From Pseudoalteromonas piscicida (GTDB taxonomy: Bacteria; Pseudomonadota; Gammaproteobacteria; Enterobacterales; Alteromonadaceae): a DNA stretch of 64,000 nt. Location: positions 3,059,001 through 3,123,000 of the forward strand of contig NZ_CP011924.1 of assembly GCF_000238315.3 (NCBI RefSeq), written 5' to 3'. Shown piece after piece: positions 2,579 through 13,073 of the stretch; the first letter of the stretch is position 1; each line of letters opens with the position of its first letter. The notes under the pieces were generated by a model. It made no database searches, was not told where the DNA came from, and saw only the letters and a program-made list of their open reading frames with translations. A program made the position numbers and the translations under genes.

Positions 2579-2643
2579 CTAAATAAGAATTATTTTCAAA
2601 AAGAGCGTTGACAGCTCTTCAAATCTAATTGATAATCACTATC
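2579..2643 (+). promoter_or_regulatory. Fur-controlled sigma-70 promoter of sRNA copy 1
   Basis: The -35 hexamer TTGACA (2608-2613) and the extended -10 GATAAT (2631-2636) are 17 bp apart. One Fur-like 19-mer ends at 2597 (AATAAGAATTATTTTC core) just before the -35, and a second, CTAATTGATAATCACTATC (2625-2643), covers the -10. By eye each matches roughly 14 of 19 positions of GATAATGATAATCATTATC. Two boxes bracketing the promoter imply tight repression when iron is plentiful. Confidence 0.75.
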
Positions 2644-2847
2644 AACAAGACGAGAGTGACGGCTCAACTTGTTATCACAATAGTTTCTTGACCCGAAACA
2701 AGGCTGGTATCCACAACTACCAAGGACGTTAGTAGGCACTTGCATTGCTCCTCGTATTTAGACGCTAACTCCAGTTTTTACTTGCTACATTGCTCATATC
2801 GGTGACGGTAGATATGAAATCAAAAAGCCCTGCTCAGGGCTTTTTTT
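2643..2847 (+). ncRNA. RyhB-like iron-responsive small RNA, tandem copy 1
   Basis: The predicted transcript is about 205 nt, from just after the -10 box to an intrinsic terminator (stem AGCCCTG/CAGGGCT at 2826-2841 followed by seven T). Its 3' half holds the block shared by all three copies (2776-2817), including CTTGCTACATTGCTCATATC. This resembles the enterobacterial RyhB core, where ACATTGCTCA also occurs inside the target-pairing segment. Copy 1 also has a second CATTGCTC-like segment at about 2741-2749. RyhB represses iron-using proteins under iron limitation with Hfq. The Fur promoter plus seed plus terminator make the call; the exact 5' end is inferred from promoter spacing. Confidence 0.72.
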
Positions 2848-2901
2848 ATGTCCAAAATTTATTTTTACTTCGGTATTTCCTAGAAAAACAGCCACACTAA
2901 T

Positions 2902-2965
2902 ATTAATGAGAATTATTTTCAAAAAAGTATTGACTCATTGTTAGATCTAACTGATAATCACTATC
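2902..2965 (+). promoter_or_regulatory. Fur-controlled sigma-70 promoter of sRNA copy 2
   Basis: TTGACT (2930-2935), a 17-bp spacer and GATAAT (2953-2958) form the promoter. The upstream Fur-like box is at 2902-2920 (TTAATGAGAATTATTTTC core) and the second, CTAACTGATAATCACTATC, at 2947-2965. The architecture is the same as in copies 1 and 3. Confidence 0.73.
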
Positions 2966-3241
2966 AACAAGACGGCAACGTGTTGTTTAGCCAATTCAGT
3001 TAGTAAGGTTGATAGTTGTAAAGCCCTGTCTACCTGATGTACTCGCTACATTGAGATTGGCATTAGTACTCTAGTTTGTTTCTCGACCCTGAAACACGGC
3101 TGGCCAACGTTAATGGCTTGAATGAGCTTAATTCAGTCGCCCCTAAACCTGACTAAGTTTATTCTCACAATTTACTTGCTACATTGCTCATATCGGTGAC
3201 GGTAGATATGAACGTAAAAAGCCCTGCTCAGGGCTTTTTTT
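2965..3241 (+). ncRNA. RyhB-like iron-responsive small RNA, tandem copy 2 (longest)
   Basis: The predicted transcript is about 277 nt. The conserved 3' block (3171-3212) has the same ACATTGCTCATATC seed and is followed by the same AGCCCTG-CT-CAGGGCT hairpin and T-run ending at 3241. The 5' part is longer than in the other copies and contains a degenerate second seed, GCTACATTG at 3045-3053, which may be a relic of a fourth unit. A stretch reading CGACCCTGAAACACGGCTGG (about 3085-3104) has a counterpart in copy 1 (TTGACCCGAAACAAGGCTGG). Same role as copy 1, perhaps with an extra pairing site. Confidence 0.7.
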
Positions 3242-3295
3242 ATGCCTAAAATTTATATCTATTTTCAACGCTTACCGAAAAACAGCTGCATAAAT

Positions 3296-3359
3296 ATTAA
3301 TGAGAATTATTTTCAAAAAGGTATTGACCTGACGGTAAATCTAATTGATAATCAATATC
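3296..3359 (+). promoter_or_regulatory. Fur-controlled sigma-70 promoter of sRNA copy 3
   Basis: TTGACC (3324-3329), a 17-bp spacer and GATAAT (3347-3352). Fur-like boxes lie at 3296-3314 and 3341-3359 (CTAATTGATAATCAATATC). It is the third repeat of the same promoter design within 1 kb. Confidence 0.73.
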
Positions 3360-3522
3360 AACAAGAGGACATACTCTTGCTGATTCGGCCCTGAATCGTG
3401 TTGTCGGTGATGTGCTACAACGCCCCTTGATGTGTATCACTGGCAACCACTTTTTACTTGCTACATTGCTCATATCGGTGACGGTAGATATGAATCAAAA
3501 AGCCCTGCTCAGGGCTTTTTTT
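3359..3522 (+). ncRNA. RyhB-like iron-responsive small RNA, tandem copy 3 (shortest)
   Basis: The predicted transcript is about 164 nt, ending at the shared terminator (stem at about 3500-3515, T-run to 3522). The conserved block at 3451-3494 again contains CTTGCTACATTGCTCATATC and the GGTGACGGTAGATATGAA tail. The unique 5' region differs from copies 1 and 2, so the three RNAs may share core targets but differ in accessory pairing. A long open frame reading through this RNA into the next gene is not coding: it crosses the terminator. Confidence 0.72.
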
Positions 3523-3624
3523 ATGCCTACATTTTCTATCAGCGTTTGTTCAGCTGTAATGTCGTGTAATCGTTTTCTTTTACTAGAATCCGTATCATTC
3601 TATTTTTCCAAAAATAACAATAAT

Positions 3625-5034
3625 ATGAACGCTCGACGCTACCGTTATAACATGTTGTTAAGCCTGCTGCTGCTGGTAGGGTTTATTTTCACCAGCTGGA
3701 TAAGTATCGAGCATGCTAAACAATCGTTGTATAAAGGGGTGAGCGATGATGCTCTGCCACTCACCAGCCATCTGATTGATTTAGATATACAAAAACGGCT
3801 CCAAGCTCCAATCATTGTTTCTCAGCAAATGGCAAATAACGTCTTTATTAAACGTTGGCTAACGTCTTCACAGCAAGACCCTGCGCTTATTTTCACCTAC
3901 TTAGAAGATACTCGAGTATTACATCACGCAAAAACGAGCTTTTTAGTGGACGACAAGAGCCTCACTTATTACCACTCTGATGGTAGCACCCAACAGTTAG
4001 ACATCCGTGCCAAACAAAACGATTGGTACCGAGAAAGCCTGCATAGCGATGCTGACTATGCGCTCAATGTTGATATAGACCCAAGAGATAACAACGAAGC
4101 CATTGTTTACGTCAATCATAAAATAAGGCAAAACAACGATGTAATTGGCGTTGTTGGGGTTGGTATCTTATTGGCTGATTTACACAATTTAATCGAACAA
4201 TACGAAGCCAGCTACGCACGCAAACTGTACTTTATTGACCACAAAGGCAGGCTATTATTTTTTAACGATCAGACCCTATCTGGCACCAGTATTCATGATC
4301 GTTTTCCAACCCAAGCAACGGCGCTGCTCAATCAATCCGAATATCAATTTCAGTTGGAAACCGACGACCATGCCGAGTTTGTTCATTCGCGCTATTTGGA
4401 CTCTATAGGCTGGTATCTAATTGTTGAGCAAACAATAGATAAATCAAGTGGAATAAGCGACATCCTCACAACCAATTTATGGGTAGGGAGCCTCGTCACC
4501 TTATTAATATTGGCCGTAGCGCAGCTGACGTTTAATCATTATCAAAAACGCTTAGAAAAAATGGCGAAGTACGACAAACTCACCGATACCTTTAATCGTC
4601 AAGCCTTCGAGCCACAGCTTCAGCATCATTTAGCTAAAGCGCGTACCCAATCAACCCCTGTAGTAATGTTGATGATGGACATTGACCACTTTAAACAAGT
4701 GAACGATCAACATGGCCATGTGGTAGGCGACAGAGTGCTGCAATGCTTCTCCAACGTATGTAAACGCCAGATAGAAAACAACGGTTTGCTGTGCCGCTGG
4801 GGAGGCGAAGAGTTTATGGTATTGCTACCCAAAGCGACGTTAGAGCAAGGAATTGCGATTGCTGAGAAGATCCATGTTGCTCTAGAGCAGGCGGAATGTG
4901 AGGTCAAAGTGACAGTCAGTATTGGCGTTGCACAATACCATATTGATGAATCGGAAGATGGATTTATAAAGCGCGCCGATGCCGCGCTCTATCGTGCCAA
5001 ACAAGGTCGGAATCAAACCAAATTCGCCGCTTAG
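3625..5034 (+). CDS. Membrane diguanylate cyclase with periplasmic sensor domain (GGEEF)
   Basis: 469 residues from the ATG at 3625. The frame is open further upstream but runs through the sRNA terminator, so the later ATG is chosen although its ribosome-binding site is weak. TM1 (about residues 10-30, LLSLLLLVGFIFTSWI) is followed by a periplasmic Cache-like sensor (about 35-285), TM2 (about 295-315, WVGSLVTLLILAVAQL) and a GGDEF domain (about 325-469). The domain shows DxxHFKQVND and an intact RWGGEEF active site, so it should make c-di-GMP. No RxxD inhibitory site is seen five residues before GGEEF, so product inhibition may be absent. Its ligand is unknown. It lies just downstream of three iron-responsive sRNAs and overlaps the convergent GTPase gene by 4 bp. 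Confidence 0.85.
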   Translation: MNARRYRYNMLLSLLLLVGFIFTSWISIEHAKQSLYKGVSDDALPLTSHLIDLDIQKRLQAPIIVSQQMANNVFIKRWLTSSQQDPALIFTYLEDTRVLHHAKTSFLVDDKSLTYYHSDGSTQQLDIRAKQNDWYRESLHSDADYALNVDIDPRDNNEAIVYVNHKIRQNNDVIGVVGVGILLADLHNLIEQYEASYARKLYFIDHKGRLLFFNDQTLSGTSIHDRFPTQATALLNQSEYQFQLETDDHAEFVHSRYLDSIGWYLIVEQTIDKSSGISDILTTNLWVGSLVTLLILAVAQLTFNHYQKRLEKMAKYDKLTDTFNRQAFEPQLQHHLAKARTQSTPVVMLMMDIDHFKQVNDQHGHVVGDRVLQCFSNVCKRQIENNGLLCRWGGEEFMVLLPKATLEQGIAIAEKIHVALEQAECEVKVTVSIGVAQYHIDESEDGFIKRADAALYRAKQGRNQTKFAA

Positions 5035-5040
5035 CGGCGA
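5024..5040. terminator. Hairpin at the convergent gene ends (possible bidirectional terminator)
   Basis: TCGCCGC-TTA-GCGGCGA is a 7-bp GC-rich stem whose loop contains both stop codons of the converging cyclase and GTPase genes. There is no T-run, so termination efficiency is uncertain. Confidence 0.4.
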
Positions 5041-5975
5041 TTCTTACGCGCTCTTGCGCGGCGCTGACGTTTTTCGTCTTCACGCGCGGCCTTTTTAGCC
5101 TCAGCTTGTGCTCGTAACTCAGCAACCATTTCTTCTTCCGACTCTCGCATTTCCGGCGTTTCCATCGTGATCAGCCCGATAACAGCATCGCGCAGTTCGT
5201 TGATTAAAATCTCAGACATCTTATGCGTATCGACCTGATTGCCACCCTTTACACAGCCGCGCTTGCGGCCAGCCATTTCGATAAATGTCCAGTCACAATC
5301 CGGTAATTCGTCGAGCTTGTAACGTGCTTTTAAAAGCTCTGGATATGCACCTAGCAGATATTCAGCGGTGTAGCTCGCCACTTCTTCATAATTGATAGCA
5401 GTATCGCGAATAGCACCCGTTGCCGCCAAACGATAGCCCGAGTTTTCGTTCTCAACCTTTGGCCACAACATACCCGGCGTATCGTAAAGCATAATGCCGT
5501 CTTCAAGCTTAATACGCTGTTGCGCTTTAGTTACCGCTGGTTCATTACCTGTCTTTGCAACGATTCTGCCAGCAAGTGTATTGATAAGTGTCGATTTACC
5601 CACATTTGGAATACCCATGATCATAGCTTTTAGCTGCTTATCTTGACCCACTTTATGAGGTGCAAGCTTTTTGCAAAGCGCATTAATACGCTGTACTTCA
5701 TTCGCCTTATCATGACCAAACGCCAGTGCTTTTACGCCGCTCTCACGTTCAAAATACTCCATCCACTGCTTGGTCAGTTCAGGATCGGCAAGGTCCGCTT
5801 TGTTCATGATTTTGATAACAGGCTTGTCTCCGCGTAACTGCCCTACCATCGGGTTTTCGCTACTATATGGAATACGAGCATCCAGCACTTCAATAATGAC
5901 ATCCATCTGCGGCATGATCTCTTTGATCTCATTGCGCGCTTTATTCATATGCCCTGGGAACCACTGTATTGCCAT
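5031..5975 (-). CDS. ylqF: Ribosome biogenesis GTPase YlqF/RbgA
   Basis: 314 residues with the circularly permuted GTPase order of the family: G4 (IMNKADLAD) at about residue 60, then G1 P-loop (GIPNVGKSTLIN) at about 120, then G3 (LYDTPGML) at about 170. The N-terminus MAIQWFPGHMNKA is the classic YlqF signature. The protein assists late assembly of the 50S subunit and acts in the cytoplasm. The C-terminus is a basic, Lys/Arg-rich tail. The ATG at 5975 is chosen over a GTG three codons earlier because AGGTGG lies at the right distance before it. Monocistronic, facing the cyclase gene. Confidence 0.92.
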   Translation of the reverse strand: MAIQWFPGHMNKARNEIKEIMPQMDVIIEVLDARIPYSSENPMVGQLRGDKPVIKIMNKADLADPELTKQWMEYFERESGVKALAFGHDKANEVQRINALCKKLAPHKVGQDKQLKAMIMGIPNVGKSTLINTLAGRIVAKTGNEPAVTKAQQRIKLEDGIMLYDTPGMLWPKVENENSGYRLAATGAIRDTAINYEEVASYTAEYLLGAYPELLKARYKLDELPDCDWTFIEMAGRKRGCVKGGNQVDTHKMSEILINELRDAVIGLITMETPEMRESEEEMVAELRAQAEAKKAAREDEKRQRRARARKNRR

Positions 5976-6725
5976 TATAACCACCTGTATTAATTAACTT
6001 TAAAAGCTCATATGTTGAACACCTTACCAAACTCACACCTACCATAACGTCGTTCGTACGGAGCAAGAGATAAGTGTAGGATACAACATAGGGTACTAAA
6101 CGCTTTTAATACAGCAGCAGTACCTCATCACTAAGTTGGCTATTCTACTATAAATTAGCAGGATTGGGTTAATGGCTATGAATTCTGTTTAATTCACATA
6201 TCACGCTCAAAATACTTGTCCATATATCGCAGCTATGAGTAAAGCCAACCTGTCCTCCTGACAGGTTTCTACGCCCAGCAATCACACCCAGAAAGCACAA
6301 TTTCTCGGCGGGTGTACCTCCTCCCACGAAACTATTTGCACTGCGAATTAAGAGGTTATGCTGATAGTTTTTGTAACCCTTGCAAACAGCTTAATTAATA
6401 AAAATCGTAGAAGATCTCACAAGCAGCTTATCCCCCTCCTCCATCACACCTTTCATGGGTAGCAACTGCCTGCTCGAGAATATTGAAAAAATGGACTTCA
6501 TCACACATCTACACTTAATTGCAGATATGGGAGGTATGGAAATCACTGATATGGCCTGCTTGGTTTCTAGCGTAATAAAATAACAATTAAAGTGAACTCG
6601 GAACATGGAGTTAGTTTACTAACAGATTCATGAGGCATTTCGTTACGCGTTAGCAGCGCAGTGGAAAATATTCTTGCCTTGAATTATCCACTCAAAAGTT
6701 GAGTGGATAATTCAAACTCAAAAAC
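5976..6725. other. 750-bp intergenic region with hairpins, no gene called
   Basis: No convincing gene. A perfect 8-bp hairpin AACCTGTC-CTCCT-GACAGGTT lies at 6247-6267. About 15 bp on, a second fold pairs ACACCC with GGGTGT and AGAAA with TTTCT (about 6283-6312). A 61-codon plus-strand frame ending near 6584 reads somewhat protein-like but has no usable start codon near its beginning and may be a gene remnant. Confidence 0.5.
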
Positions 6726-8693: not shown

Positions 8694-9854
8694 ATGAATT
8701 TTACTTTGAGCAACTCAACCGCACTGATTGGCCTAGCCTGTTTACTAATTTCTTCAGCAGTTTTGGCAGCCGAGCGACCTGTCACCATGGCCGACATTGA
8801 AAATCTTGAGCGGCAATTGGCTGAGCTTAAAGCTCGGTTTATGACCCAAAATAGCGAACCAAAGGCCGCAGCTCCAGTGGCAAAATCAACACCACAAAGT
8901 GACCCGGTAAAACCACCTACTGAGCACTCAACCACGCTCAAAACCTATGCCACAATACGCCCGACATTTGGCGTAATCAATCAAGATGATACAAGTAACT
9001 GGGATGTTCGTGATGCCTTATCCCACGCAGGGATTAAAGTGACACATGAATTTATGCCGGGCTGGCAGGCCGAACTTCATGGTGAATGGGGCATCGATCT
9101 CGCCAATGAAGGAAATTTTGGCAAATCACGTCGTGCTTATACAGCGCTAGGTACACCGTATGGTCGGTTTGGCATTGGCAAACAAAGGCCTGCACAGTAT
9201 CTGTTTATTGCCGAATACGTTGATATTTTTAATCACGCCAGCAGCCCATTTGCTTACGATCCAGAGAGTATTTTTTTCGTTGATAATTTAGTTACTTACC
9301 GCTATGAATTGGGACCAATGACGGTTATCGCTGCTGGCCAATTTAATGGGGATAAGGGCGATAATCAAACGGATTTATTCAACACTGGGTTAAGTTACGA
9401 TAACGCGGGTTTACATGCGGCGATTACTTATCAACAAAACAATGTATACGATAACGAGCAGCATATTGGTGAAAACCAACTTTGGTCTGGTGCACTTGCT
9501 TATCAATTTACCTCCCGCTTTTACGCTGCCATGGCGTATCAGGACAAAGACTATCAACGCGTGGGCGTACTTGATTCTCGACAAGGCCACACCTTTGATC
9601 TTTCGTTGGCCTATCAACTCGCAAAACACTATAAACTCAAAACCGGATATTTTGATTTTGATGACGGTTACGGCAGTCATGATCCGCTTAATCAAAGCTT
9701 CGATAGCTACAATGTTACACTTGAGTGGCTACCAACACCGCCCCTCAGAGTGCACTTGGAGTACTTAAACAAGTCCTTCGACAACCAAATCGATATGGAC
9801 TCCATCTCTATTGGCTTTAGGTACGATTACAAGCAAGAGTGGCAATTTGATTAG
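8694..9854 (+). CDS. Outer-membrane porin (intact copy at the duplication)
   Basis: 386 residues. A signal peptide (ALIGLACLLISSAVLAAE) is followed by a short coiled-coil (about 30-50, IENLERQLAELKARFM) and a beta-barrel with many aromatic girdle residues. The protein resembles Gram-negative general porins with an N-terminal coiled-coil; the solute is unknown. The last residues are QEWQFD rather than a terminal Phe. From base 8914 (codon 74) to beyond its stop, the gene lies in a 1109-bp direct tandem duplication. Its TAG stop consists of the TA target site plus the first G of a partial MITE at 9854. Confidence 0.8.
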   Translation: MNFTLSNSTALIGLACLLISSAVLAAERPVTMADIENLERQLAELKARFMTQNSEPKAAAPVAKSTPQSDPVKPPTEHSTTLKTYATIRPTFGVINQDDTSNWDVRDALSHAGIKVTHEFMPGWQAELHGEWGIDLANEGNFGKSRRAYTALGTPYGRFGIGKQRPAQYLFIAEYVDIFNHASSPFAYDPESIFFVDNLVTYRYELGPMTVIAAGQFNGDKGDNQTDLFNTGLSYDNAGLHAAITYQQNNVYDNEQHIGENQLWSGALAYQFTSRFYAAMAYQDKDYQRVGVLDSRQGHTFDLSLAYQLAKHYKLKTGYFDFDDGYGSHDPLNQSFDSYNVTLEWLPTPPLRVHLEYLNKSFDNQIDMDSISIGFRYDYKQEWQFD

Positions 9855-10022
9855 GGCCTGTTGATCTTTCAAGTTTGTTTTTGCAGCAGTTTGATTGCCA
9901 TTTATACAAGGCAAAGCCTGTGTAGCATAGTTATTCTATGTGAGTCAGGCGATAACGCAGTAGAAATGCCAATCAAGCGCTGCCCTTTGGGTTCCCCTGA
10001 GTGCGCTTTGTTCATTGTTGCT
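9854..10022. mobile_element. Left part of the MITE (truncated copy at the duplication junction)
   Basis: 169 bp identical to the first 169 bp of the complete MITE at 10963, starting with the inverted-repeat end GGGCCTGTTGATCTTT. It lacks the other end because the duplication junction cuts it at 10022, so it cannot move by itself. Confidence 0.8.
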
Positions 10023-10963
10023 CACCTACTGAGCACTCAACCACGCTCAAAACCTATGCCACAATACGCCCGACATTTGGCGTAATCAATCAAGATGATA
10101 CAAGTAACTGGGATGTTCGTGATGCCTTATCCCACGCAGGGATTAAAGTGACACATGAATTTATGCCGGGCTGGCAGGCCGAACTTCATGGTGAATGGGG
10201 CATCGATCTCGCCAATGAAGGAAATTTTGGCAAATCACGTCGTGCTTATACAGCGCTAGGTACACCGTATGGTCGGTTTGGCATTGGCAAACAAAGGCCT
10301 GCACAGTATCTGTTTATTGCCGAATACGTTGATATTTTTAATCACGCCAGCAGCCCATTTGCTTACGATCCAGAGAGTATTTTTTTCGTTGATAATTTAG
10401 TTACTTACCGCTATGAATTGGGACCAATGACGGTTATCGCTGCTGGCCAATTTAATGGGGATAAGGGCGATAATCAAACGGATTTATTCAACACTGGGTT
10501 AAGTTACGATAACGCGGGTTTACATGCGGCGATTACTTATCAACAAAACAATGTATACGATAACGAGCAGCATATTGGTGAAAACCAACTTTGGTCTGGT
10601 GCACTTGCTTATCAATTTACCTCCCGCTTTTACGCTGCCATGGCGTATCAGGACAAAGACTATCAACGCGTGGGCGTACTTGATTCTCGACAAGGCCACA
10701 CCTTTGATCTTTCGTTGGCCTATCAACTCGCAAAACACTATAAACTCAAAACCGGATATTTTGATTTTGATGACGGTTACGGCAGTCATGATCCGCTTAA
10801 TCAAAGCTTCGATAGCTACAATGTTACACTTGAGTGGCTACCAACACCGCCCCTCAGAGTGCACTTGGAGTACTTAAACAAGTCCTTCGACAACCAAATC
10901 GATATGGACTCCATCTCTATTGGCTTTAGGTACGATTACAAGCAAGAGTGGCAATTTGATTAG
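10023..10963 (+). pseudogene. 5'-truncated duplicate of the porin gene
   Basis: This is a copy of porin codons 74 to the stop, identical in protein sequence to the intact gene. It has lost the signal peptide, coiled-coil and promoter. The open frame now begins inside the MITE fragment (ATG at 10001 giving MRFVHCCSPT, which is not a signal peptide), so any product could not be exported. It is best treated as a pseudogene created by the tandem duplication. Confidence 0.85.
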
Positions 10964-12599: not shown

Positions 12600-13073
12600 A
12601 TGACAAACATTAATTCTATCGGTTTAGACAAAGCAAAGAGCCAAGCACTGGTAACGTCACTTAATACGCTACTAAGTAGCTACCAAATTCAATATATGAA
12701 TGCCCGTGGTTTTCACTGGAACATCAAAGGTCGTGAGTTTTTTGAACTACACCTAAAATTTGAAGAGATTTATACGCTATTACTTGAGAAGGTAGACGAA
12801 ATCGCAGAGCGTATTTTGACGATTGAAGGCAACCCATTGCATGCGTTTTCTGATTATTTGGAAACCAGTAAAATTCAAGAAGCAAAAGGGATCAGCAATG
12901 GTACACAAGCACTAGAAACCTTGCTTGATGGCTACACAACACTTATTTCTATGCAGCGTGAAATTTTAGCACAGGCGGGTGAAGCCGAAGATGAAGGGAC
13001 AGCAGCGCTAATGAGCGACTACATCAAAGAGCAAGAAAAGCTGGTATGGATGCTTAAAGCGTATTTAAACTAA
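12600..13073 (+). CDS. dps: Dps-family DNA-protecting mini-ferritin
   Basis: 157 residues, the usual Dps length, starting after a good AAGGAG site. The ferroxidase signature is present: FHWNIKGREFFELH (about residues 39-52), followed by FEEIYTLLLEKVDEIAERI with the Asp and Glu iron ligands. Dps forms a dodecamer that oxidises Fe(II) with peroxide, stores the iron and shields DNA in stationary phase. The N-terminus is short and lacks a Lys-rich tail, so DNA binding may be weak. Transcribed alone; the REP-like repeats that follow may mark its 3' end. Confidence 0.92.
   Translation: MTNINSIGLDKAKSQALVTSLNTLLSSYQIQYMNARGFHWNIKGREFFELHLKFEEIYTLLLEKVDEIAERILTIEGNPLHAFSDYLETSKIQEAKGISNGTQALETLLDGYTTLISMQREILAQAGEAEDEGTAALMSDYIKEQEKLVWMLKAYLN

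What the first reader, a model, noticed from the sequence alone, without database searches (positions are those of the whole stretch)
2579..3522. Three tandem RyhB-like iron-responsive sRNA genes
Three units in 950 bp each have two Fur-like boxes, a 17-bp-spaced sigma-70 promoter, the block CTTGCTACATTGCTCATATC and the same AGCCCTG/CAGGGCT terminator, while their 5' parts differ. ACATTGCTCA is shared with the RyhB pairing core (known for enterobacteria). Tandem sibling sRNAs are known (PrrF1/F2, Qrr), but a triple RyhB-type array here appears undescribed and implies dose or target division.
Basis: partly seen in the sequence, partly recalled or inferred. Interest (0 to 1): 0.8.

Follow-up and report, generated by a model that had tools for sequence, protein, structure and literature searches.

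The report
Three sibling iron-sparing RNA genes
A marine bacterium carries three neighbouring small-RNA genes that are probably switched on by iron shortage; they look like a new, multi-copy relative or look-alike of the iron-sparing RNA RyhB, and they probably shut off succinate dehydrogenase.

Summary
At 2584-3522 lie three promoter-to-terminator units. Each has two Fur-like boxes, a 17-bp-spaced sigma-70 promoter and an identical 41-nt 3' module plus terminator. The window is Pseudoalteromonas. The module matches in 107 of 108 genomes of the genus searched (0-5 copies each), and 21 of 109 named Pseudoalteromonas stretches hold three or four exact core copies. Rfam's RyhB model does not match.

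The 5' parts are not random. GACCC is in 150 of 173 units, in a hairpin loop in 147. CGCCCC is in 129 of 142 ylqF-side units, flanked by covarying stems. In this clade unit 1 replaces CGCCCC by a second copy of the seed. Same-position 5' parts are 76-99% alike between relatives, different units 34-56%.

The 24-nt core is strongly complementary to the sdhC ribosome-binding region in 13 of 13 Pseudoalteromonas genomes (mean -22.6 kcal/mol; 0 of 432 control starts reach the window genome's own value). sodB, the classical RyhB target, is not predicted.

Best reading: Fur-repressed, trans-acting iron-sparing sRNA siblings, RyhB-like in action but not shown to be RyhB by descent. No expression data. 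New variant of a known kind.

The parts
2584..2598 (+). unit 1 upstream Fur-like box
   Evidence: 11 of 14 consensus matches
2608..2636 (+). unit 1 sigma-70 promoter TTGACA-17-GATAAT
2630..2644 (+). unit 1 second Fur-like box over the -10 and start
   Evidence: 13 of 14
2643..2847 (+). unit 1 sRNA, about 205 nt (start inferred 7 nt after the -10)
   Evidence: inferred ends
2683..2699 (+). unit 1 hairpin H1, loop with GACCC
2724..2772 (+). unit 1 hairpin H2; its loop holds a second seed CACTTGCATTGCTCC (2737-2751) instead of CGCCCC
   Evidence: TTGCATTGCT in 6 of 6 unit-1 copies of the clade
2777..2817 (+). unit 1 conserved 41-nt module: open seed UUUACUUGCUACAUUGC, then hairpin UCAUAUC/GAUAUGA
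2822..2847 (+). unit 1 intrinsic terminator
   Evidence: the scan reported it on the - strand
2907..2921 (+). unit 2 upstream Fur-like box
   Evidence: 12 of 14
2930..2958 (+). unit 2 promoter
2952..2966 (+). unit 2 second Fur-like box
   Evidence: 13 of 14
2965..3241 (+). unit 2 sRNA, about 277 nt
   Evidence: inferred ends
3041..3055 (+). unit 2 extra seed-like block ACTCGCTACATTGAG; changed or absent in relatives
3077..3096 (+). unit 2 hairpin H1 UGUUUCUCGACCCUGAAACA
3133..3152 (+). unit 2 hairpin H2, loop with CGCCCC
3171..3211 (+). unit 2 conserved 41-nt module
3216..3241 (+). unit 2 terminator
3301..3315 (+). unit 3 upstream Fur-like box
   Evidence: 12 of 14
3324..3352 (+). unit 3 promoter
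3346..3360 (+). unit 3 second Fur-like box
   Evidence: 13 of 14
3359..3522 (+). unit 3 sRNA, about 164 nt; folding z-score -3.75 for the 170-nt stretch 3356-3525
   Evidence: inferred ends
3382..3397 (+). unit 3 hairpin H1, loop GGCCC here, GACCC in relatives
3400..3447 (+). unit 3 hairpin H2, loop CGCCCCUUGA on a long stem
3453..3493 (+). unit 3 conserved 41-nt module
3497..3522 (+). unit 3 terminator

Best explanation
Three sibling trans-acting sRNA genes form an iron-sparing switch. Iron-loaded Fur sits on two boxes over each promoter and keeps them off (inferred from the boxes). In iron shortage three RNAs of about 205, 277 and 164 nt are made (inferred). All carry the same 3' module, whose open seed UUUACUUGCUACAUUGC with the following UCAUAUC pairs bipartitely with the ribosome-binding region of sdhC (about -26 to -2 from the start codon), blocking translation of succinate dehydrogenase and sparing iron (the pairing is computed; the effect is inferred). 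The 5' hairpins are presumed further contact loops: GACCC in H1, and CGCCCC in H2 of units 2 and 3 (the acnB Shine-Dalgarno is a candidate). Unit 1 has swapped the H2 loop for a second seed. The siblings would thus share a core target and differ in accessory targets or strength. It works like RyhB; descent from RyhB is open.
For: Conservation: 107 of 108 genus genomes match the model; 170 of 171 units have a Fur-like box. H1: GACCC in 150 of 173 units against 20 in shuffles, stem of at least 4 pairs in 147. H2: CGCCCC in 129 of 142 primary units against 3 in shuffles. In 41 distinct fixed windows not chosen by pairing, 83.8% of cells pair (slid controls 28.6-56.8%) and 115 cells change on both sides (controls 20-42); over 100 distinct units the longest helix across CGCCCC averages 10.9 pairs against 6.4 with shuffled flanks. 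Seed open in predicted folds (0.62-0.68 unpaired; whole RNAs 0.39-0.47). sdhC: 13 of 13 genomes, -19.4 to -25.5, mean -22.6 kcal/mol, same place; 3 of 1000 shuffled cores do as well; 3 of 432 control starts reach -19.4, none -21.8. Siblings: same-position 5' parts 76-99% alike, different units 34-56% (L024 unit 3 not counted). Unit-1 seed swap in 6 of 6 clade copies.
Against: No expression, Fur-binding or Hfq data. No Rfam match. With the core, sodB (mean -9.6), the other SOD starts (-9.7) and acnB (-11.5) are at background, fumA (-13.75) is reached by 75 of 432 controls, and ferritin-type starts show no conserved pairing. In a looser control of 743 starts 8 reach -19.4 and 2 reach -21.8, one of them the sRNA's own antisense. 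In the window's own genome a coding stretch near sdhC scores slightly better (-22.1 against -21.8); in other loci the best stretch away from the start reaches -16.3 to -21.1. The 15-mer scan of the own genome gave 207 matches; placement was examined for 27 non-array ones and gene context for 14 of these, with no obvious iron gene. The 13 genomes are related, so their sdhC sites are not independent. Folding of units 1 and 2 is less convincing (z -0.53 and -2.47).
Confidence: 0.75

Rival explanations
1. Plain dosage: three redundant copies of one iron-sparing sRNA; 5' differences are drift and the copies only raise RNA level.
For: The 41-nt module is identical in the three units and nearly invariant in the genus; copy number varies from 1 to 5 in the 107 matching genomes.
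Against: 5' parts are conserved by position between species and keep hairpins with conserved loops and compensated stems; unit 1 has a conserved swapped loop.
Confidence: 0.3
2. True RyhB by descent, too diverged for Rfam, as was reported for Shewanella.
For: Shared ACATTGCTCA core; GACCC also lies in the 5' part of E. coli RyhB; Shewanella ryhB was likewise missed by BLAST and Rfam (PMC2964681, passages).
Against: 10 nt shared is weak (11 of 1000 shuffles); shuffles of E. coli's 5' part hold GACCC in 187 of 2000; sodB pairing, which that paper calls persistent, is not seen; the genus model finds nothing credible outside the genus in 295 genomes of the order, two of them of the genus, though only 16 candidates per genome were scored.
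Confidence: 0.45
3. Cis-acting: leader or terminator units that control a neighbouring gene (the GGDEF gene downstream).
For: The GGDEF gene follows unit 3 by about 100 bp on the same strand.
Against: Each unit ends in a terminator; in many relatives the array abuts ylqF without that gene, and single copies sit at another locus.
Confidence: 0.05

Closest known systems
RyhB of E. coli and Vibrio; Shewanella RyhB (168 nt)
   Same: Fur box at the promoter, ACATTGCTCA block (E. coli), terminator; V. cholerae RyhB represses SdhCDAB, FumA and SodB (PMC5225090, passages); S. amazonensis has two tandem copies (PMC2964681, passages). RyhB sites in E. coli msrB hold AUGUGAGCA (PMC3650055, passages), and the sdhC site of L221 holds the same nine letters.
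   Different: No Rfam match; up to 5 copies; conserved GACCC and CGCCCC hairpins; sdhC rather than sodB predicted, whereas the Shewanella authors saw no likely sdh pairing.
PrrF1/PrrF2 of Pseudomonas aeruginosa
   Same: Tandem Fur-regulated siblings (PMC4211561, passages).
   Different: Two copies; no PrrF model match; here 5' parts diverge strongly.
IsrR of staphylococci and FsrA of Bacillus
   Same: Iron-sparing sRNAs; two of IsrR's three C-rich regions are in hairpin loops, and FsrA binds Shine-Dalgarno by a C-rich motif (PMC9410917, passages).
   Different: Single-copy Firmicutes RNAs as I recall; here C-rich loops are joined to a RyhB-like seed.
Qrr and csRNA sibling families
   Same: Several siblings (table in PMC4211561, passages: Qrr 4-5, csRNA 2-6).
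   Different: Other processes (quorum sensing; competence, autolysis and others) in that table; not Fur-regulated iron-sparing RNAs (recalled).

Membership tests
RyhB (Rfam RF00057) | Match to the family covariance model | tested here: not met
   0 matches in window and genome; E. coli control rings; absent among 39 weak matches up to E = 10
RyhB (Rfam RF00057) | Fur site at the promoter | tested here: met
   Six Fur-like boxes in the array, 170 of 171 units; sequence only, no binding data
RyhB (Rfam RF00057) | Core pairing block shared with enterobacterial RyhB | tested here: inconclusive
   ACATTGCTCA, 10 nt; 11 of 1000 shuffled units and 2 of 1000 shuffled modules share as much
RyhB (Rfam RF00057) | Complementarity to sodB mRNA start | tested here: not met
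   13 genomes, mean -9.6 kcal/mol with the 24-nt core, background mean -10.6; the two C-rich loops also at background; full-length RNAs not tested
RyhB (Rfam RF00057) | Represses iron-using TCA enzymes (sdh) | tested here: inconclusive
   Strong conserved complementarity to sdhC in 13 of 13 genomes; repression itself not testable
RyhB (Rfam RF00057) | Iron-repressed transcription, Hfq dependence | not testable with these tools
   No RNA data
PrrF | Match to an Rfam PrrF model | tested here: not met
   No gathering match and not listed up to E = 10
C-rich-loop iron-sparing sRNAs (IsrR/FsrA type) | Conserved single-stranded C-rich loops | tested here: met
   GACCC 150 of 173 units, CGCCCC 129 of 142 primary but 2 of 31 second-locus units; H2 stem covaries
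C-rich-loop iron-sparing sRNAs (IsrR/FsrA type) | C-rich loop pairs with Shine-Dalgarno of iron-enzyme mRNAs | tested here: inconclusive
   CGCCCC loop vs acnB -13.5 in 8 of 10 genomes, mean -12.6; 9 of 432 control starts as strong

The most novel reading that the evidence does not exclude
A genus-wide family of modular iron-sparing sRNAs that joins a RyhB-like seed to C-rich anti-Shine-Dalgarno loops, amplified to as many as five siblings in which the loop cassette is exchanged (C-rich loop or second seed) while the seed module is frozen, so that one Fur signal is split into several target programmes.
Probability: 0.35. Interest if true: 0.7.

Novelty: new variant of a known kind. Interest (0 to 1): 0.55.

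Why it matters
Pseudoalteromonas is a marine heterotroph, and seawater is often iron-poor (general knowledge). The listings of the paper searches made showed no iron-sparing sRNA of this genus (open-licence papers only). If true, this gives the genus its missing iron-sparing regulator, not matched by any Rfam family, with a concrete target (sdhC). Natural arrays of 1 to 5 siblings also let one test whether multiplied sRNA genes serve dose or division of targets.

Tried and rejected
Rfam weak hits (STnc420, MicC and others) lie far below their gathering scores and appear to rest mainly on the terminator. The order-wide model search gave two hits outside the genus (E about 0.002); neither shows the core in a Fur-boxed unit on inspection. 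Synteny of such units with ylqF elsewhere in the order was looked for in 30 loci (29 beside the own one) and not seen, but the loci reach only 1.5 kb and fail to show even the window's own array, so this says nothing. Whether VC0106/SO4716, the gene beside ryhB in Vibrio and Shewanella, is ylqF was not settled. A 15-mer target scan of the own genome gave 207 matches against 74 for the reversed pattern, but that control differs in CpG content, so no enrichment is claimed. Of 49 listed ferritin-family matches 30 had loci; no conserved pairing. dps pairs well in several species but not in the window's own. An H1 contact with sdhC is at background (143 of 432 controls). E. coli RyhB's GACCC is a lead only.

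Rows dropped: acnB used 10 of 15 matches (one with an unclear start, four of a second type); sdhC 13 of 26 (the others are neighbouring sdh matches or second-type copies); SOD: 13 sodB-type and 7 of 8 others. One search used nine hairpins that I had cut out by their pairing, so its 98% paired is partly by construction, and one of its measures (further pair types) does not exceed the shuffles; one search repeats the test on all 58 units (41 distinct) with AACGCCCCTTGAT in fixed windows. A few of those (3 to 6 of 13 outer pairs) do not fit that register. Control starts are mechanical ORFs, not verified genes. The 'second locus' set (34 stretches) was chosen because no ylqF hit was seen there, so its lack of ylqF is by construction; 28 of 34 share the same type of downstream gene, called TPR-like by eye. 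In one search L056 unit 1 had no anchor, L024 unit 3 and L104 unit 2 were anchored too far upstream; L104 unit 2 is counted (hence the low end, 76%), L024 unit 3 is not.

Full report
What is there. Between 2584 and 3522 lie three head-to-tail units on the + strand. Each consists of an upstream Fur-like box, a TTGAC-17-GATAAT promoter, a second Fur-like box over the -10 and start, a unit-specific 5' part, an identical 41-nt module and an identical terminator. No ORF of 90 codons lies wholly inside the array; the GTG-started ORF from 3412 has its likely start at 3625, a GGDEF gene.

Where it comes from. The 20-mer CTTGCTACATTGCTCATATC hits 110 stretches of the species-level genome collection: 109 Pseudoalteromonas and one Bacteroidales, whose flank does not continue the module. 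Of the 109, 62 hold one exact copy, 26 two, 19 three and 2 four; arrays can be cut by stretch ends. A covariance model of the module finds 107 of 108 genomes of the genus, with 1, 2, 3, 4 or 5 copies in 11, 38, 33, 22 and 3 genomes, all loci of a genome together. In 295 genomes of the order, two of them of the genus, only two weak hits outside the genus appear, and these look spurious. The window's own genome has only the three copies.

Context. In 60 of 109 stretches a ylqF-type GTPase gene is present, as in the window (5031-5984), with or without a GGDEF gene between. Many species have a further single copy elsewhere, usually before one type of gene that looks TPR-like by eye (28 of 34 such stretches), also with Fur-like boxes. 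The window strain lacks that one.

Of 173 units with a definable start, 150 hold GACCC (shuffles 20), nearly always as the loop of a short hairpin: a stem of at least 4 pairs in 127 of 127 primary and 20 of 23 second-locus units holding it. Stems differ between units (UGUUUC/GAAACA, GAUUC/GAAUC, UUACU/AGUAA, UGCUU/AAGCA), which supports the hairpin. CGCCCC is in 129 of 142 primary units (shuffles 3), with a stem of at least 4 pairs close to the loop in 95, but only in 2 of 31 second-locus units. For 41 distinct fixed windows around AACGCCCCTTGAT, taken without regard to pairing, 83.8% of cells pair (28.6-56.8% when slid) and 115 cells change on both sides (20-42 when slid). Over 100 distinct CGCCCC units the longest flanking helix averages 10.9 pairs (6.4 with shuffled flanks), and 92 have at least 7.

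Unit 1. In the window clade unit 1 has no GCCCC; at that place its loop holds CACTTGCATTGCTCC, a shortened second copy of the seed. TTGCATTGCT is there in 6 of 6 unit-1 copies of that clade and in none of the other 136 primary units. The six are close relatives, so the exact-test value printed there is inflated. One unit of another species without GCCCC (L023 unit 2) has a longer block of the same kind, CTTGCTAGTACATTGCTTG; other units without GCCCC show none.

Siblings. Within the clade the 5' parts of same-position units are 76-99% identical over the alignment, those of different units 34-56% (anchoring faults are told in Tried and rejected). So these are separately kept genes rather than a fresh triplication, while the 3' module is held constant.

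Target. Against -60..+40 of start codons, the 24-nt core gives for sdhC -19.4 to -25.5 kcal/mol in 13 of 13 genomes, always covering about -26 to -2 from the GTG. The duplex is bipartite in most: nine pairs with GGCAAGUAA next to the start, then a second helix with a variable block in which G and A alternate opposite U. Controls: 3 of 1000 shuffled cores reach the mean; the start region is the best within 3 kb in 12 of 13 loci, the exception being the window's own genome, where a coding stretch at +1218 scores -22.1 against -21.8. Of 432 control starts 3 reach -19.4 and none -21.8. In a larger, looser control of 743 starts 8 reach -19.4 and 2 reach -21.8, one of them the sRNA's own antisense. 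sodB, fumA, acnB and ferritin-type starts are not convincing with the core. The CGCCCC loop pairs with the acnB Shine-Dalgarno at -13.5 in 8 of 10 genomes, reached by 9 of 432 controls: a lead.

How it probably works. Shown by sequence: promoters with Fur-like boxes, terminators, conserved structure, conserved complementarity to sdhC. Inferred: iron-repressed transcription, pairing in the cell, translational block and mRNA decay, Hfq help, and sharing of further targets between siblings through H1/H2.

Comparison with the known. RyhB-like RNAs are described in a review as iron-regulated sRNAs of analogous function without significant homology (PMC4211561, passages). Its table gives two siblings for RyhB and PrrF, 4-5 for Qrr and 2-6 for csRNA. 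Shewanella RyhB was missed by BLAST and Rfam, is 168 nt, and is a tandem pair in S. amazonensis; its authors name the Fur site and sodB complementarity as the persistent features and saw no likely sdh pairing (PMC2964681, passages). V. cholerae RyhB is said to repress SodB, SdhCDAB and FumA (PMC5225090, passages). Here the Fur site is present, sodB complementarity is not seen, and sdhC pairing is. C-rich loops recall IsrR and FsrA (PMC9410917, passages). I therefore call these RyhB-like in action and leave descent open. Searches for Pseudoalteromonas or Alteromonas with RyhB, tandem or sibling RyhB and Pseudoalteromonas with sRNA or iron terms listed no paper whose title or abstract start points to this array. 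Of the Pseudoalteromonas listings I read passages of two (PMC11277574, PMC12096840). Most subscription papers are not in that library.

Scores. The existence of Fur-controlled sRNA genes is nearly certain from conservation. sdhC as a direct target is likely. Division of targets is plausible but untested. Interest 0.55: a good new family and natural copy-number series within a known kind of regulation.

Noticed in passing
window 8914-9213 and 10023-10322: Exact 300-nt direct repeat inside two neighbouring ORFs (8694-9854, a porin by Pfam, and 10001-10963): a recent tandem duplication with a shortened second copy.
   Followed up: partly
window 12600-13073: Dps/ferritin-like gene near the array; in several relatives its start or leader is complementary to the sRNA core (-16 to -21 kcal/mol), but in the window's own copy only -11.3.
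   Followed up: partly
L002, L004, L018, L029 and 24 further stretches: A second, dispersed copy of the sRNA before one type of gene (TPR-like by eye); of 31 such dispersed units with a definable start 23 hold GACCC and 2 CGCCCC; absent in the window strain.
   Followed up: partly
L209-L221, about 45-80 bases before the sdhC start: The sdhC leader shows a possible hairpin CCAYC/GRTGG whose two sides seem to change together between species (read by eye).
   Followed up: no
L168, L169 (G000:C1:4209777 and 4211170): A nucleosidase-like gene start (MTA/SAH type, named from recall) is found twice, 1.4 kb apart, in the own genome: another recent tandem duplication.
   Followed up: no
L263:223-317: E. 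coli RyhB also has GACCC in its 5' part, in the same order relative to ACATTGCTCA as here; shuffles hold it in 187 of 2000.
   Followed up: partly
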